This document shows positions 47,490-54,551 of a DNA stretch of 64,000 bases, piece by piece. Position 1 is the stretch's first letter. Every line of letters starts with the position of its first letter. The notes under the pieces were generated by a model, which was not told where the DNA came from, ran no database searches, and saw nothing but the letters and a program-made list of their open reading frames with translations. The position numbers and the translations under genes are program-made. This DNA comes from Terriglobus sp. TAA 43. Its GTDB lineage: Bacteria; Acidobacteriota; Terriglobia; Terriglobales; Acidobacteriaceae. Location: positions 2,542,001-2,606,000 of the forward strand of contig NZ_JUGR01000001.1 of assembly GCF_000800015.1 (NCBI RefSeq), in the 5' to 3' direction.

Positions 47490-49148
47490 ATGGCTGCAAC
47501 CACAATGGAAGAAACCGGCGAATCAGCCGAGGTAGTGCACGCGGCAGAACAGCCGTGGCGACCGAAGCATAACCCCTGGCTGATTGCCCTCACGGTAACC
47601 CTGGCTACCTTCATGGAGGTACTGGATACCTCTATTGCGAATGTGGCTTTGCCGCACATTGCGGGTGGGTTGGGTGCCTCGCAGGATGAGGCCACGTGGG
47701 TCATCACCAGTTACCTGGTGGCCAACGCCATCATCCTTCCTGCTTCGGCGTACCTGACCACGTTCATCGGGCGCAAGAAGTTCTACATGATCTGCGTGGT
47801 CATCTTTGGTATCTCGTCGGCTATGTGTGGGCTGGCGCCTACCCTGCCTATCCTGATCCTGTTCCGGTTGATCCAGGGTGCGGGTGGTGGTGGACTGGGG
47901 CCGAGTGAGCAGGCCATCCTTGCAGATACCTTTGAGCCTAAGCAGCGAGGGCAGGCGTTCGCGCTGTATGGGCTGGCGGTGGTTGCTGCTCCGGCGATTG
48001 GGCCGACATTGGGTGGATGGATCACCGACAACTATGACTGGCGATGGATATTCTTCATCAACGTCCCGGTTGCGATCCTGTCTTTGGTGCTGACGACTCG
48101 TATGGTGGAGGATCCTCCGCACATTACCAAGGAAGTGGCGGCGAACAAGCTCAAGGGTCTGAACCTGGATTACATCGGGTTTGGTCTGCTGGCGCTTGGC
48201 TTCGGGTCGCTGGAGTTTGTGCTGGATAAGGGCCAGGAAGATGACTGGTTCGGTTCGTCCGTGATCACGGCCTTTGCCATTGTGTGCGCTGTGTCGCTGA
48301 TTAGTCTGATCATCTGGTCGCTGTGGCGGTTGAAGAAGGGGGATAAAACCATCCTGAACCTGACACTGTTCAAGCAGCGTAGCTTTGCTGTGTCGTTCAC
48401 GCTGCTGTTCGTGCTGGGCTTCTCGCTGTATGCGTCGACTGTGCTGATTCCGCAGTATGTGCAGACGTTATTGGGTTATACAGCGGAGCTTGCGGGATTG
48501 GTGATCTCGCCGGGCGGAGTGACGATCATGCTGATGATGCCTGTTGTTGGCATCCTGATTACTCGTCTTGATCCGCGTGTGATGATCTCGTTCGGCTTTG
48601 CGCTGCTGACGTATTCGCTTTACCTGATGCACTCACATATGAATCTTGGGTCGTCGTTCGCAGATATTATGTGGCTGCGCATTGTGCAGGCTGCTTCGCT
48701 GGCGTTTCTGTTCATTCCGATCAACACCATTGCGTACAACAATATTCCGCGTTCACAGAACAACGATGTGAGCGGACTTTCAAATCTTGCTCGTAATGTG
48801 GGTGGGTCGGTGGGTACGGCGTTCGTGGCGACGATGTTGTCGCGGCGGTCGCAGGCGCATCAGGGTTACATGATCCGCAACCTTACACCGTCAAGCCAGG
48901 CGTTCAACGACCGGGTGAACAGCGTTGCCGGATTCCTGCAGGGCAGTCGCGGTCCGGGCGGCGGCAACCATGCCGATGCGATCTCCGCAGCGCAGGGCAA
49001 CGTCTACAACATGCTGCACAACCAGGCGTCGATGCTGGCTTACCTGGACATCATCGCGGTGCTAGCAGTGTTCACGGCCATCATGGTTCCGCTGGTGTGG
49101 ATTGTGCCCAAGCCCGGTCACATGGACGGCGACGCACCCGCACACTAA
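47490..49148 (+). CDS. DHA2-family (EmrB-type) MFS drug exporter, 552 aa
   Basis: About 14 membrane helices. The family signatures TFMEVLDTSIANVALPHIAGG (motif D1), a GRKKFY loop (motif A region), LFRLIQGAGGGGLGP (motif C-like) and IGPTLGGWI are all present. EmrB-type proteins export toxic compounds using proton flow, often with a membrane-fusion partner; none is in the window. The C-terminus is cytoplasmic. The gene ends just before a strong terminator and the low-GC island. Confidence 0.93.
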   Translation: MAATTMEETGESAEVVHAAEQPWRPKHNPWLIALTVTLATFMEVLDTSIANVALPHIAGGLGASQDEATWVITSYLVANAIILPASAYLTTFIGRKKFYMICVVIFGISSAMCGLAPTLPILILFRLIQGAGGGGLGPSEQAILADTFEPKQRGQAFALYGLAVVAAPAIGPTLGGWITDNYDWRWIFFINVPVAILSLVLTTRMVEDPPHITKEVAANKLKGLNLDYIGFGLLALGFGSLEFVLDKGQEDDWFGSSVITAFAIVCAVSLISLIIWSLWRLKKGDKTILNLTLFKQRSFAVSFTLLFVLGFSLYASTVLIPQYVQTLLGYTAELAGLVISPGGVTIMLMMPVVGILITRLDPRVMISFGFALLTYSLYLMHSHMNLGSSFADIMWLRIVQAASLAFLFIPINTIAYNNIPRSQNNDVSGLSNLARNVGGSVGTAFVATMLSRRSQAHQGYMIRNLTPSSQAFNDRVNSVAGFLQGSRGPGGGNHADAISAAQGNVYNMLHNQASMLAYLDIIAVLAVFTAIMVPLVWIVPKPGHMDGDAPAH

Positions 49149-49175
49149 ACCCTTCCGCAACACATCACTACAACG

Positions 49176-49203
49176 AATGGCCGCTCCTTCTGGAGCGGCC
49201 ATT
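49176..49203 (+). terminator. Terminator of the DHA2 exporter
   Basis: AATGGCCGCTCC-ttct-GGAGCGGCCATT, exact 12-bp stem. Confidence 0.85.
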
Positions 49204-49237
49204 TGCTCTTGCGCTGAACCTTTTCCGCAATGGGATA

Positions 49238-49266
49238 GGGAGGGGTACCCCCTCCCCCCTGTTTTT
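49238..49266 (+). terminator. Second, GC-rich terminator-like hairpin
   Basis: GGGAGGGG-TAC-CCCCTCCC, then TTTTT a few bases later. It lies in series with the exporter terminator and shields the island from read-through. Confidence 0.6.
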
Positions 49267-49364
49267 GCAAAATCGTCTTTCGAAAGGACTTAGCTGCGGG
49301 GTATCCCGCAAAATCGTCTAACCATTGGGGTTAGAGGCAAAATCGTCTTTCTATTGGACTTACG
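49267..49364 (+). repeat. Three-copy array with core GCAAAATCGTCT
   Basis: Exact 12-mers at 49267, 49308 and 49337. Each is followed by a related stretch of about 15 bases ending GGACTTA or GGGTTAG; the middle copy can fold as TCTAACC-attgg-GGTTAGA. A fourth exact core lies at 35491. The spacing (41 and 29) is too irregular for CRISPR. It looks like a dispersed repeat family. Confidence 0.65.
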
Positions 49365-49426
49365 CTTGAGTCACACGCAACCCCACAAAGGCCCTACTTC
49401 TATTGTAGCGATCTGGAGGAAATACC

Positions 49427-49549
49427 ATGCCAAGTTTATCCTTTTTATTATGTGTAGTTTATATGGATTGGGGACTTGACACTTCGCAAATGATTTCGCA
49501 GGTGTTCTTCAATAGTGGTGGCTTGCCGTCTGCTTCGGAAGTTATATAG
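49427..49549 (+). CDS. Possible 40-residue peptide upstream of the island genes
   Basis: A frame beginning MPSLSFLLCVVYMDW with an excellent ribosome binding site (TGGAGGA, 6 bases before the ATG). It is AT-rich and slightly hydrophobic at the start, and ends inside the first TATAGC site. No family is recognised. It may be a leader peptide, a small membrane peptide, or the remnant of a larger gene. Only the start signal supports it. Confidence 0.35.
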   Translation: MPSLSFLLCVVYMDWGLDTSQMISQVFFNSGGLPSASEVI

Positions 49550-49597
49550 CGTTTAAGCTATAATCAGGCGCATGTCAACAAACACGTATAAGCTATA
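49545..49597 (+). promoter_or_regulatory. Island promoter with TATAGC operator sites
   Basis: TATAAT at 49559-49564 is the -10 (the -35 TTCGGA at 49534 is poor). An exact inverted repeat TATAGC-GTTTAA-GCTATA (49545-49562) overlaps it, and AAGCTATA recurs at 49555 and 49590. The pattern is typical of autoregulation by an XRE protein, and the second island gene encodes one. Confidence 0.6.
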
Positions 49598-49637
49598 TGA
49601 GGGTGGCTCTTGTCGGCGTCAAAGCGTGAACGATTAA
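49572..49637 (+). other. Possible 21-residue leader ORF (near-leaderless)
   Basis: An ATG lies only 8 bases after TATAAT and opens a 21-codon frame (MSTNTYKLYEGGSCRRQSVN D) that overlaps the start of the first island gene. It could couple translation. Weak evidence. Confidence 0.3.
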
Positions 49638-49984
49638 ACGAGATCGTTCATCGGCTTGATGACGCTGCCCCATGCGCAGACGCTCAGTCTGCGCTTGCTT
49701 TGATTAAAGCTGTTATGCGTACGGTTGAAGATGCGATGAGCGGTATTCCGGAAAATCCTTCCGCGGCCACATCTCTACCGGATGGGCGTATGTATCCGCC
49801 ACACGAACTCTTCGAAAAGAAATCTGGTCATTCCATGGTGCAGCTCTTCAAGCAAACCGGACACTCGACTTGGATCGGACAGAACGGCGCTTTCAGAATT
49901 CAACGTTCAGATGAATTCGTCGAAATTGACAAACCAGGTAAAGACGGAAAGACGATAAGCGACCTGATGTCGGAGGAACAATGA
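49610..49984 (+). CDS. Unrecognised 124-residue protein, first gene of island module
   Basis: Starts at TTG 49610 with GAGGG 6 bases upstream; a stop codon 12 bases earlier excludes any earlier start. The N-terminal half is helical (LNEIVHRLDDAAPCADAQSALALIKAVMRTVEDAMSG). The C-terminal half has strands around WIGQNGAFRIQR and VEIDKPGKDGKTISDL. No signal peptide or membrane segment. Its stop overlaps the start of the XRE-like gene (ATGA), so the two are translated together. I cannot assign a family. As the smallest gene in a regulator plus ATPase operon it could be an effector, toxin or adaptor, but nothing in the sequence proves this. Confidence 0.7.
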   Translation: MSASKRERLNEIVHRLDDAAPCADAQSALALIKAVMRTVEDAMSGIPENPSAATSLPDGRMYPPHELFEKKSGHSMVQLFKQTGHSTWIGQNGAFRIQRSDEFVEIDKPGKDGKTISDLMSEEQ

Positions 49985-50655
49985 ACAATATCGAAAAGCT
50001 GCGCGCTTCCGTAATAAAGGATCATCCGGATGCATTAACGAAAATCGATCAACCTTCGCGAGCCGAAGGGATGTGGTCGCTCGAAATCGAGCTTCGGGAC
50101 ATTTGTCTTGTTATTGAGTGGTCGATCGCAACCGGCTTCGGCATTACAACGAAAAATATCGAAACTTTCGGAGAAACAGCGGACGAGCAAATCTCATCCC
50201 TGTCGAAAGCTACTGATCGCGTTCGAATGTTATTGGATTCCAACGAACACACCTCCCCCCCACTTCCGGTGCTCTTGGCCCGACTTAGAGAGCGACGCGG
50301 GCTCACGCAGCGAGGACTTGCCGAGATTTTAGGGGTTCGACAATCCACCATCTCAGGTATCGAACACAGGGAAGACATTCAGTTGAGCACTTTGCAGCGC
50401 ATTGCTGACGCCCTGGGAGGGAGCTTATCTATTGCGATGTCATTCTCTGATTCACGACACGAAGTCTTGCTTGCATCGGGCCATGCCTCGGTCACTGCTG
50501 TAAATGCTCGAAGGGATTCCTGTCGCAGTTCTCGCAGGGAAGTGTCAGATTCTACCGATTTCAGCAGACTCCGCGAATCTGGAACACTGGAACGTGCAAC
50601 TCAGATTGCCAGAACCATCAGTGACAGACATTGCGTGATTGAGATGCCCCAATGA
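49981..50655 (+). CDS. XRE helix-turn-helix protein with unknown N-terminal domain, 224 aa
   Basis: Residues about 1-88 form an unrecognised alpha/beta domain (MWSLEIELRDICLVIEWSIATGFGI... FGETADEQISSL). An XRE-type helix-turn-helix follows (about 93-150; LLARLRERRGLTQRGLAEILGVRQSTISGIEHREDIQLSTLQRIADALGG), then a Ser/Arg-rich tail with an amphipathic helix. XRE antitoxins and phage repressors use this fold to bind palindromes, matching the TATAGC sites at the promoter. Both ends overlap neighbours by ATGA. It probably represses the operon and may also bind a partner protein through the N-terminal domain. Confidence 0.82.
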   Translation: MNNIEKLRASVIKDHPDALTKIDQPSRAEGMWSLEIELRDICLVIEWSIATGFGITTKNIETFGETADEQISSLSKATDRVRMLLDSNEHTSPPLPVLLARLRERRGLTQRGLAEILGVRQSTISGIEHREDIQLSTLQRIADALGGSLSIAMSFSDSRHEVLLASGHASVTAVNARRDSCRSSRREVSDSTDFSRLRESGTLERATQIARTISDRHCVIEMPQ

Positions 50656-52436
50656 GAACCATAACCTTTTACTCGTACAAAGGCGGCGTGGGCCGCTCCC
50701 TTCTCGTCGCGAATGCGGCGCGATACCTCTCTTTTCTTGGAAAGAGTGTAGTAGCGCTAGATTTGGATCTGGAAGCTCCAGGTCTACATTACAAATTCGA
50801 ATTAGGTGTGGAAGGTAGCCGTATTAGGCCCTCGAAAGGAATTGTCGATATTCTTTCAGGCTTCTTAGAGGTAGGGCAGCTTCCCAAGGACCTGATGGAG
50901 TACGCCGTAGAAGTGCCGGTATCACCTAACGCAGGACGAATTTTGATCATGCGCGCAGGTGCGGCACCAGAAGGAGACTATTGGCGCAAGCTTTCAAAGA
51001 TAGATTGGTATGACCTGTTCTATGGTCCGGAACCCACCGGAACTCAATTTTTTCTTGAGCTGCAGGAGCGCGTTCGTCAAGACCTTAATCCTGATTTCTT
51101 TCTCATTGATGCGCGGACCGGTGTCACAGACATGGGAGGGGTGGCAACGACCTTGCTTCCCGATACGGTCGTCTGTCTTGCACTCGACAGTATTGAGCAC
51201 CTGGAAGGGATAAGAGCCATGATGCTGGGCGTTAAACAGACGACGTCCAAGCAAGGGACTCAAGTAAATCTTGTTCCAGTAATCTCTCGTCTCTTAGTCA
51301 GAAAAGACGACACAATGGAGGTCCAGCAACTAAAGAAAGTTCAATCGTTCTTGAATGAGCCCTTAAAGGAGGGTGGACCAGTTCTTGGATTAGCGGAAGT
51401 AATCGCACTGCACTCTGAACCTCTCCTAGATACAGAAGAGCAACTCCTTGTAGGAGGAAGCAATAGTCCCCACGATTTACCACTGCTGCGCGACTACTTG
51501 AAGCTGTTTTCAAAGATAATCCCGGCGGAAGAAGTTCGGCCTCATGTTGGGTTACTTATCCAACAGGCAATTAGCCGTCTTTTAGACGATCCAGATGGTG
51601 CGCAGAGTGATCTCGAAGCTCTCACCACTTACTGCGCCGATGAAGACGCCTATCGCGCACTCCTCAAGCTTTACCAAGTAAGAAAAGCGCCTCTGGAAAA
51701 GAGCATAGCGACCGCGGCACTGATGTGGCAGCTTCACTCTTCTGGCTCAGTTCCGGAGCCTTTGTTAGCGGACATCGTTCGAAGTGCATACTCCGAACCG
51801 CGTGCTAGTGAATTGCAAAAGAAATATGCGGACTTCGCCGCGAATGTCTGGAGATCAAACGGAATCGAAGACGTAAAAGTACTGATTAACATTGCGAACG
51901 CGTACCTGCCTGAGCGACGTGATCGGGCCGTGCGTTTGCTGGTTGAATCGATTGAGAGGGCTCGAGAGCCCCAAATGACAGCCATTGTGAGATTGGTTGA
52001 TGTCTTAAGAGGTGGGAGATTTTTCTCGCAGGCGCTAACAGTCGTCAACAAGTTCAAGATATTAGACACCTCTCCGGAATTTCAAACAGCCTGGGCGAAA
52101 CTCCTTGTGGACCAGAATAACGAGGTAGGTGCTAGAGCAGTGCTGCAAGATCCAGCATTTAATCTTGAAGCCGTACGTCTCGATGATCCCGTAGCGCTTA
52201 TCCGTTTGCTCAAATTGGCTAACGGTGAAATCGCCATAGCCTTACTTCGTGACGGGTTAGAGGTTGCACTCGCGAGGCACGACTTCTCTCAGCTACAGGA
52301 GATCGCAACCATGTATCACGAACAGGACAATTTCGATGAGTTTGTGATGAGGTCGAGGGGCCGGGTCCCGGATGATTTCATCGACGATATGACGAAGGAT
52401 CCTCGACGACGAAATCGTCGATATCGAGGGTATTAG
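50652..52436 (+). CDS. KGGVGR-type MinD/ParA-like ATPase with helical C-terminal half, 594 aa
   Basis: The deviant Walker A is Lys10-Gly-Gly-Val-Gly-Arg-Ser16; ALDLDLEAPGL supplies the second Walker A-like Asp and LIDARTGVTDMGG (about 149-161) the Walker B/switch region. This is the KGGVGR variant of SIMIBI ATPases, which recurs in regulated bacterial conflict systems. The C-terminal region (about 295-594) is mainly alpha-helical with repeat-like pairs and could be a sensor or scaffold; it ends in a very basic tail (DPRRRNRRYRGY). The gene overlaps the XRE gene by ATGA. Base and codon usage differ from the flanking chromosome. Function is unknown; a defence ATPase is the main hypothesis. Confidence 0.88.
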   Translation: MRTITFYSYKGGVGRSLLVANAARYLSFLGKSVVALDLDLEAPGLHYKFELGVEGSRIRPSKGIVDILSGFLEVGQLPKDLMEYAVEVPVSPNAGRILIMRAGAAPEGDYWRKLSKIDWYDLFYGPEPTGTQFFLELQERVRQDLNPDFFLIDARTGVTDMGGVATTLLPDTVVCLALDSIEHLEGIRAMMLGVKQTTSKQGTQVNLVPVISRLLVRKDDTMEVQQLKKVQSFLNEPLKEGGPVLGLAEVIALHSEPLLDTEEQLLVGGSNSPHDLPLLRDYLKLFSKIIPAEEVRPHVGLLIQQAISRLLDDPDGAQSDLEALTTYCADEDAYRALLKLYQVRKAPLEKSIATAALMWQLHSSGSVPEPLLADIVRSAYSEPRASELQKKYADFAANVWRSNGIEDVKVLINIANAYLPERRDRAVRLLVESIERAREPQMTAIVRLVDVLRGGRFFSQALTVVNKFKILDTSPEFQTAWAKLLVDQNNEVGARAVLQDPAFNLEAVRLDDPVALIRLLKLANGEIAIALLRDGLEVALARHDFSQLQEIATMYHEQDNFDEFVMRSRGRVPDDFIDDMTKDPRRRNRRYRGY

Positions 52437-52456
52437 AACTCATTGGAGAATGAGTT
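52437..52456 (+). terminator. Hairpin at the end of the island operon
   Basis: AACTCATT-ggag-AATGAGTT starts directly after the stop codon. The T-tail is weak. Confidence 0.6.
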
Positions 52457-52571
52457 TATAGGTTTGGTCGTCTAAGAGGTACACCTGGGGGTCTACCAGC
52501 GAAGACGTCACCCATCCACAACAATCAGCTTGTGCGTCTTCATCTGCCAGCTCTCCCAGGAACTACCACAT

Positions 52572-54371
52572 CTACTCGCCGACTTTTAGGACGGCTAGGA
52601 AGGCTTCCTGGGGGATGTCTACTTTGCCTATTCGCTTCATGCGCTTTTTGCCCTCTTTTTGCTTGTCGAGGAGTTTGCGCTTTCGGCTGATGTCGCCGCC
52701 GTAGCACTTGGCGAGTACGTCTTTCTTAATGGCACTTACTGTTTCGCGCGCTACGATCTTGCTGCCGATGGCGGCCTGGATGGCGACCTCAAACATCTGG
52801 CGGGGGATGAGCTCCTTCATCTTGTGGACGAGGGCTTTGCCGCGTTCGTAGGCGAAGTCGCGGTGGACGATGATGCTGAGTGCGTCAACGGGTTCGCCGG
52901 AGACGAGGATGTCCATCTTGACCATGGGGCTGGTCCAGGTGCCGGAGAGATGGTAGTCGAGTGAGGCGTAGCCGCGGCTGACGGACTTGAGGCGGTCGTA
53001 GAAGTCGAGCACGATCTCGTTGAGCGGGAGCTCGTAGGTGATCATGACGCGGTTGGCGGAGACGTACTCCATGTTCTGCTGCTTGCCGCGCTTTTCTTCT
53101 ACGAGCTTGAGGATGTTGCCGACGTACTCCTCGTTGGTGAGGATTTTGGCGATGATGACGGGCTCTTCGACCTCGTCGATCGTCGTGGGGTCGGGCCAGC
53201 GCGAGGGGTTTTGCACTTCAAGCGTGGTGCCGCCGGTGAGGTGGACCTTGTAACCCACGCCGGGAGCGGTGGTGATGAGGTCGAGTCCGAACTCGCGCTC
53301 GAGGCGCTCCTGGATGATTTCCATGTGGAGCAGGCCGAGGAAGCCGCAGCGGAAGCCGAAGCCGAGGGCCACGGAGGACTCGGGCTCGAAGGAGAAGGAT
53401 GCGTCGTTGAGCTTGAGCTTGCCGAGGGCTTCGCGGAGGGCTCCGTGCTCGTGGCTTTCTACGGTGTAGAGGCCGGCGAAGACCATGGACTTGATGTCTT
53501 CGAAGCCGGGGAGCATTTCGGTGGCGGGGTTGGTGGGGTCAGTGATGGTGTCGCCGACCTTGGTGTCTGCCACGTCCTTGATGGTGGCGACGAAGAAGCC
53601 GACTTCGCCTGCGGAGAGTTCGGCGATTTCGACGGGCTTGGGGGTGAGGACGCCCATGGATTCTACGTCGAAGACTTTGCCGTTGGACATGAGCTTGATG
53701 CGCTGGCCCTTGCGAAGCTTGCCGTTGATGACGCGGGCGAGCACGATGACGCCCTTGTAGGGGTCGAACCAGCTGTCGAAGATGAGTGCCTGGAGCGGCT
53801 TTTCGCTGTCGCCGGTGGGTGGCGGCATGAGCGTGACGACCGCTTCGAGGATGTCGGCGACGTTGAGGCCGGTCTTTGCGGAGACGGCGATGGCGTGATC
53901 GGCGGGGAGGCCTACGGTGGTTTCGATCATCTCCTTGGTGCGCGGGATGTCGGCACTGGGGAGGTCGATCTTGTTGATAACAGGGATGATCTCGAGGCCG
54001 TTGGAGATGGCGAGGTAGGCGTTGGCCAGGGTCTGGGCTTCTACGCCCTGGCTGGCGTCGACCACGAGGAGGGCGCCTTCGCAGGAGGCGAGGGAGCGCG
54101 AGACTTCATAACTGAAGTCGACGTGGCCGGGGGTGTCGATGAGGTTGAGCTGGTAGGTCTGGCCGTCGTGGGCCTGGTACATCATGCGGACCGAGTGGGC
54201 CTTGATGGTGATGCCGCGTTCGCGCTCGAGGTCCATGGCGTCGAGGACCTGCGCCTGCATCTCTCGCTGCGTGAGCGAGCCGGTGAGTTCGAGGAGGCGA
54301 TCAGAGAGGGTCGACTTGCCGTGGTCGATGTGCGCGATGATCGCGAAATTACGTATGTACTTGGGGTCCAT
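52572..54371 (-). CDS. lepA: Elongation factor 4 (LepA), 599 aa
   Basis: A ribosome-bound translational GTPase that can back-translocate stalled ribosomes. G1 AHIDHGKST (13-21), G2 around RGITIKAH, G3 DTPGHVDF and G4 NKIDLP are all present; EF-G-like domains II, III and V follow, and the unique C-terminal LepA domain with the conserved [22 protein letters not shown] segment completes the normal length. The ATG at 54371 has AAGGG upstream; a start 10 codons earlier is less likely. Cytoplasmic. Confidence 0.96.
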
Positions 54372-54551
54372 GCTCACCCTTGATTCTACGTGCTTCGGCA
54401 CTTCGTGCCGTGCTCGACGTCGCTCCGGGGACGTGATTCCTGGCAGAATTTCGTGGCGAGATGGCCGTTGGGCGCGCGGGGGAGGGCTTCCGAGTGCTCG
54501 GAAGCTTGGAGCGGGGTGATGGGGGGAGGGGTTTAGGGCGTTGAACCGAGG

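What the first reader, a model, noticed from the sequence alone, without database searches (positions are those of the whole stretch)
49427..52456. Three-gene, ATGA-coupled module with a KGGVGR ATPase in a low-GC island
A 124-residue unknown, an XRE-type protein with an unrecognised N-terminal domain, and a KGGVGR-type ATPase with a helical C-terminal half overlap by ATGA twice, so they are made together. The region has visibly lower GC and different codon use than its neighbours, starts with a self-regulatory promoter, and ends with a hairpin. KGGVGR ATPases are known from regulated conflict systems (established for the family), but I recognise neither small partner. It may be a new defence or abortive-infection module.
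Basis: partly seen in the sequence, partly recalled or inferred. Interest (0 to 1): 0.8.

Follow-up and report, generated by a model that had tools for sequence, protein, structure and literature searches.

The report
Toxin-antitoxin trio with KGGVGR ATPase
Three overlapping bacterial genes look like a small toxin of a so far unnamed family, its self-regulating antitoxin, and an ATPase that may control them; they sit in a chromosomal slot where a close relative keeps a restriction-modification system.

Summary
In detail: three genes (49610-52436) overlap by ATGA twice, at 50% GC against 57-59% in the flanks. P1 (124 aa) matches nothing convincing in Pfam, NCBIfam or PHROGs. A scan of one genome per species gave 30 loci with relatives. 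In a few, P1 is the C-terminal domain of a larger protein, one a MuF phage head protein. In 28 of 30 a partner lies nearby that matches the N-terminal domain of the window's XRE protein; in 11 of the 28 it has no DNA-binding part, like an immunity protein. Best reading: toxin (P1) plus antitoxin/autorepressor (XRE). An 18-bp operator-like site recurs before the same operon in another genus. The KGGVGR ATPase is a variable third gene: 13 of 30 loci have a VOC gene; one (Occallatibacter) has the ATPase. The two ATPase-linked XRE proteins share an extra C-terminal tail, recalling toxin-antitoxin-chaperone systems. In a close relative the same slot holds an NgoMIV-type restriction system. Toxicity, target, phage defence and the ATPase's role are inferred.

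The parts
49545..49562 (+). Operator-like site TATAGCGTTTAAGCTATA (6-bp inverted arms), overlapping a TATAAT hexamer at 49559-49564
   Evidence: the 18-mer recurs with 1 and 2 mismatches before the homologous operon in L025. A degenerate pattern written from these three sites, at most 1 mismatch off, occurs in the two whole genomes only at them.
49590..49597 (+). Second half-site AAGCTATA next to the first gene
   Evidence: Read directly; not tested statistically.
49610..49984 (+). P1, 124 aa, TTG start: predicted toxin of an uncatalogued family (motif VED..SGIP..DGRMYPP..D)
   Evidence: model with mean pLDDT 80.4 (two helices then five strands).
49981..50655 (+). P2, 224 aa: predicted antitoxin and autorepressor (N-domain + XRE helix-turn-helix + C-terminal tail)
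49981..50250 (+). P2 N-domain (aa 1-90), homologous to the stand-alone partner of P1-family proteins
   Evidence: hhalign 96.1%, E 3.2e-9; HMM from five seeds alone finds 3 of the 11 stand-alone partners.
50551..50652 (+). P2 C-terminal tail (aa 191-224), shared by the two ATPase-linked copies
   Evidence: 17 of 33 aligned residues identical to the G208 copy, against 5 of 33 in the linker before it. Of the 15 other XRE relatives aligned, 14 have no residues in these columns and L054 has 13 unlike ones.
50652..52436 (+). P3, 594 aa KGGVGR-type MinD/ParA-like ATPase (P-loop domain about aa 1-215, then a C-terminal part without family hit)
   Evidence: NF047398 131.7 bits; KGGVGR, D.DLEAPG and LID.RTG.TD.GG conserved in 4 of 4 aligned ATPases.
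52436..52457 (+). AT-rich hairpin after the last gene
   Evidence: ViennaRNA -9.1 kcal/mol; not called by the terminator scan.
52572..54401 (-). lepA (elongation factor 4, name by recall), right border of the variable slot; its 3' end is duplicated at the insertion in relative G032
47490..49148 (+). MFS-type transporter gene (name by recall), left border of the variable slot

Best explanation
A three-gene toxin-antitoxin-ATPase operon. P1 is a small intracellular toxin from a family also used as a C-terminal domain of a phage MuF protein and of large actinobacterial proteins. P2 neutralises P1 with its N-domain (an immunity-protein-type domain) and represses the operon through its helix-turn-helix at the TATAGC..GCTATA operators. 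P3, a KGGVGR ATPase, is the controller: it engages P2 (probably its extra C-terminal tail) and, when it senses an infection-related change, lets P2 release P1, stopping growth. Shown by sequence: gene coupling, P1/N-domain partnership, the operator, the tail, the insertion slot. Inferred: toxicity, neutralisation, ATPase-tail contact, phage trigger. My rough odds: toxin-antitoxin core 0.75; defence purpose 0.5; ATPase acting through the tail 0.35.
For: P1 relatives: 30 loci in one scan of genome contigs. In L051 P1 is the very C-terminus of a protein with Phage_Mu_F (E 6.2e-18); in L055 it ends a SHOCT-domain protein; in L057 it ends a 593-aa protein near a YbaB gene (E 6.2e-14). 28 of the 30 loci have the N-domain partner within 4 kb, 17 with a helix-turn-helix and 11 without; homology of the two partner kinds: hhalign 96.1%, E 3.2e-9. 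Operator. Trio conserved in G208/Occallatibacter with 46/44/61% identity. Tail. ATPase kin behind MqsA-annotated regulators and TIR-like or HEPN-like proteins by eye. Slot: NgoMIV-type endonuclease, C5 methylase and Vsr in G032.
Confidence: 0.5

Rival explanations
1. The ATPase is itself the effector, and P1 with the XRE protein form an independent toxin-antitoxin or regulatory pair that merely shares its promoter (an addiction cassette stabilising the ATPase gene).
For: No ATPase was found within 4 kb of P1 in 29 of 30 loci (L039, L043 and L044 end within about 2 kb after P1). In MqsA-like/ATPase two-gene operons the ATPase is the only candidate effector.
Against: The trio stayed together at two unrelated places in two genera, with ATGA or abutting coupling, and the conserved tail is seen only in the two ATPase-linked XRE proteins.
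Confidence: 0.25
2. P1 is not a toxin but a binding or adaptor domain that the N-domain protein recognises, for instance a sensor or scaffold part, and the operon is a regulator of unknown purpose.
For: C-terminal half modelled as a strand meander, without known enzyme fold; P1 is internal, not C-terminal, in L056.
Against: Position at the C-terminus of MuF and other large proteins followed by a small partner gene is the usual layout of polymorphic toxins; invariant polar residues E40, D58, R60, Y62 could be an active site.
Confidence: 0.2
3. An ordinary selfish toxin-antitoxin island with no defence role.
For: Low GC, patchy occurrence; a P1/N-domain pair lies on a Bradyrhizobium plasmid typed as conjugative.
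Against: Same slot holds a restriction-modification system in G032; KGGVGR ATPases elsewhere lie behind TIR-like and HEPN-like proteins (by eye).
Confidence: 0.25

Closest known systems
Toxin-antitoxin-chaperone systems (for example CmdTAC, PMC11618068, passages read)
   Same: Toxin, antitoxin and a third gene in one operon; antitoxin with an extra C-terminal element linked to the third partner.
   Different: The third gene is a KGGVGR ATPase, not a SecB-like chaperone; toxin and antitoxin families differ; function untested here.
MuF polymorphic toxins (PMC5576092, abstract and outline read)
   Same: One P1 relative is the C-terminal domain of a MuF protein followed by a small partner gene (L051).
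   Different: The window's P1 stands alone, with an antitoxin that carries a DNA-binding domain.
Type II toxin-antitoxin operons with XRE antitoxins (HigBA-like; recalled)
   Same: Small first gene, XRE second gene, operator-like sites, ATGA coupling.
   Different: P1 and the N-domain have no convincing match in the libraries searched.
NCBIfam NF047398 KGGVGR-motif ATPases
   Same: P3 scores 131.7 bits against the cut-off of 90.
   Different: The window and Occallatibacter ATPases form their own clade (100/100) on a long branch among the 22 compared, with a partner type not seen in the other 20.
P1/N-domain/VOC operons (described here from 13 of 30 loci)
   Same: Same toxin and antitoxin families.
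   Different: The third gene is a VOC (glyoxalase-like) protein instead of the ATPase.

Membership tests
NF047398 KGGVGR-motif ATPase | Score over the curated cut-off; KGGVGR motif | tested here: met
   131.7 bits against 90; motif at aa 10-15.
Type II toxin-antitoxin system | Adjacent coupled small genes, antitoxin with DNA-binding domain and operator-like site | tested here: met
   (by sequence; DNA binding not tested).
Type II toxin-antitoxin system | Toxin arrests growth, antitoxin neutralises it | not testable with these tools
   Needs expression tests.
Toxin-antitoxin-chaperone (TAC) | Antitoxin C-terminal extension tied to the third partner | tested here: inconclusive
   A conserved tail is seen only in the two ATPase-linked antitoxins; binding not tested.
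Toxin-antitoxin-chaperone (TAC) | Third gene is a SecB-like chaperone | tested here: not met
   The third gene's matches are P-loop ATPase families (CbiA, ParA, AAA_31, NF047398 and kin); no SecB.
MuF polymorphic toxin | Toxin domain fused to a MuF domain | tested here: not met
   P1 of the window stands alone; the fusion is in L051.
PADLOC PDC-M28B | Match over the model | tested here: inconclusive
   Only aa 2-207 match model positions 129-332 of 438 (E 1.6e-26).
TriTu-like immunity protein fold (7zhm chain C, chain identity presumed) | Shared fold with the P2 N-domain | tested here: inconclusive

The most novel reading that the evidence does not exclude
A new class of tripartite antiphage system, toxin-antitoxin-ATPase, in which a MinD/ParA-like KGGVGR ATPase replaces the SecB-like chaperone as the sensor that the antitoxin depends on through a C-terminal hook, with a toxin family recruited from (or donated to) phage MuF and secreted toxins.
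Probability: 0.25. Interest if true: 0.8.

Novelty: new variant of a known kind. Interest (0 to 1): 0.6.

Why it matters
It gives a testable function to an uncatalogued protein pair that, by the record titles, spans Acidobacteriota, Planctomycetota, Pseudomonadota, Cyanobacteriota, Myxococcota, Verrucomicrobiota and Actinomycetota and appears in phage-type, secretion-type and chromosomal settings. It also proposes how the poorly understood KGGVGR ATPases may be wired to their partners: through the C-terminal end of the protein encoded just upstream.

Tried and rejected

C-terminal hook idea for KGGVGR partners in general: in the clade with MqsA-type partners 7 of 7 upstream proteins have [FW]xL[RK] in the last 20 residues, against 8 of 436 ORFs of the control set, 6 of which are those partners. 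The motif was chosen after seeing the sequences, and the one new MqsA-type pair (L108) misses the strict pattern though it ends PFLRPAS. Kept as a lead only. The window's tail ends VIEMPQ, not this motif. TIR-like and HEPN-like labels, and MqsA-like for L063, L064, L099 and L108, are by eye and recall; Pfam gave nothing for L092's HEPN-like protein. Paper searches for KGGVGR, GRMYPP, PDC-M28 and for 'ParA-like ATPase' with 'toxin-antitoxin' and 'tripartite' found 0 papers; this covers the held open-licence library only.

Full report
What is there. Three genes on the + strand, P1 (49610-49984), an XRE protein P2 (49981-50655) and a KGGVGR ATPase P3 (50652-52436), overlap by ATGA twice. Their GC is 0.503 against 0.571 to the left and 0.591 to the right. 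P2 has a helix-turn-helix at residues 99-150 and no family for its N-terminal part; P1 has no family at all; P3 is an NF047398 member (131.7 bits, cut-off 90). PADLOC gives only a partial match of P3 to a phage-defence candidate, PDC-M28B.

Conservation of the trio. In 298 genomes of the order, P1 was found in 3, of which one (G100) is a chance frame. It carries P1, P2 and P3 in the same order with 46, 44 and 61% identity and different neighbours. A phylum search (396 genomes) found P1 in the window's genome and in G525, where P1 is followed by a 95-residue N-domain protein without helix-turn-helix, and no ATPase was seen in the 3.3-kb stretch. G208, which would match, was evidently not drawn there.

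What P1 is. A scan of one genome per species with a four-sequence profile gave 30 loci; L034/L035 and L046/L053 are near-duplicates, and L032 and L033 are the G208 and Bradyrhizobium plasmid copies already seen. The 29 aligned members share invariant E40, D58, G59, R60, Y62, P64 and G93. In L051 the domain is the C-terminus of a 549-residue protein with a Phage_Mu_F domain (E 6.2e-18), the layout of MuF polymorphic toxins (PMC5576092, abstract read). In L055 it ends a SHOCT-domain protein. In L057 it ends a 593-residue protein without Pfam hit, near a YbaB gene (E 6.2e-14) and a gene with sub-threshold KdpC and WXG100 rows (E 0.0054, 0.0068). In L056 it lies inside a 3113-residue frame. A viral-contig scan found none and the phage collection none. 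Of 29 members scanned, none has a convincing Pfam or PHROGs match. The predicted fold (mean pLDDT 80.4) is two helices and five strands, with no convincing structural relative.

Autoregulation. The window's 18-mer TATAGCGTTTAAGCTATA (49545-49562) recurs in L025 before the homologous operon at two places with 1 and 2 mismatches, expected 0.00. A degenerate pattern written from these three sites has an expected 0.01 matches in the window at up to 3 mismatches, and at up to 1 mismatch it occurs in the two whole genomes (11 Mb) only at these places. No sigma-70 promoter was called there.

The third gene. Thirteen of 30 P1 loci have a VOC (glyoxalase-like) gene beside the pair: downstream in 11, upstream as partial matches in L048 and L050 (the VOC HMM was built from five of these loci). 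Within 4 kb the ATPase occurs in L032 only of the 30 (L039, L043 and L044 end within about 2 kb after P1). Of 7 P1-bearing genomes searched whole, one (Sorangium, L037) has a KGGVGR ATPase over cut-off, far from P1. KGGVGR ATPases over cut-off occur in 11 of 298 genomes of the order, 5 of 289 in the class of Bradyrhizobium, 14 of 173 in the phylum of Sorangium and 5 of 184 in that of Rhodopirellula. Their upstream partners include MqsA-annotated regulators on Rhizobium and Massilia plasmids and, by eye, MqsA-like (L063, L064, L099), TIR-like (L066, L070-L072) and HEPN-like proteins. In a tree of 22 P-loop domains the window and G208 ATPases form one clade (100/100) on a long branch; deeper placement is poorly supported and long branches were flagged. 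The closest outside relatives seen, L113 and L126 (43-45%), have other, unnamed partners. Earlier work notes MinD/ParA-like domains in regulated conflict systems and predicts those to be inactive (PMC7159879, passages read); here the motif residues are conserved in 4 of 4 aligned ATPases.

The tail. The XRE proteins of the window and G208 are 224 and 218 residues long; the 15 other aligned relatives, as cut for the alignment, 167-195. Fourteen of the 15 have no residues in the columns of the last 34 window residues, and L054 has 13 that are unlike. Identity between window and G208 is 37 of 90 in the N-domain, 34 of 56 in the helix-turn-helix, 5 of 33 in the linker and 17 of 33 in the tail. A conserved tail behind a variable linker, seen only where the ATPase is present, suggests that the tail serves the ATPase. 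[quoted passage not shown] The third gene here is not SecB-like, so this may work like, but is not, a TAC system.

The slot. In the two congeners with the most similar flanks (G037 and G032, of 18 others in the genus) the MFS and lepA genes are also about 3.4-3.6 kb apart, yet the trio is absent. G032 has an NgoMIV-type endonuclease (E 2.2e-117), a C5 methylase (3e-66) and Vsr (2.3e-29) there, plus a second copy of the lepA 3' end (138 bp, 95% identical). G037, the nearer of the two, has another cassette without convincing family hits and a weaker 111-bp, 75% match to the lepA 3' end. No second copy was seen in the window. So the place exchanges cassettes, at least one of them defence.

Verdict. 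A toxin-antitoxin core with a swappable third gene is well supported by comparative evidence. The defence role and the ATPase's function are plausible and unproven.

Noticed in passing
window 49148-52572; L103, L104: The MFS-lepA gap is a variable-cassette slot: restriction-modification in G032, an unknown 591-residue protein plus two small genes in G037, the trio here; a second copy of the lepA 3' end in G032 (and a weaker one in G037) hints at integration there.
   Followed up: partly
L033-L035, L038, L039, L041, L044-L046, L048, L050, L053, L054: A VOC (glyoxalase-like) gene recurs beside the P1/N-domain pair in 13 of 30 loci; its role there is unknown.
   Followed up: partly
L029, L030, L031, L063, L064, L090, L099: Proteins encoded just upstream of one clade of KGGVGR ATPases end in a short [FW]xL[RK] peptide although their tails otherwise look unlike; possible docking hook (post hoc; one new pair misses the strict pattern).
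   Followed up: partly
window 49267-49362: Three imperfect direct repeats of 26 nt (GCAAAATCGTCTTTC..GGACTTA) between the MFS gene and the operon.
   Followed up: no
L113 720-1492: A relative of the window's ATPase from the Sorangium phylum follows two small unnamed genes, the first by eye like a restriction-endonuclease fold (recalled); no Pfam hit.
   Followed up: no
L127, L129: KGGVGR ATPases on cyanobacterial plasmids lie near a type I restriction gene (Nostoc) and a caspase-family gene (Pseudanabaena).
   Followed up: no
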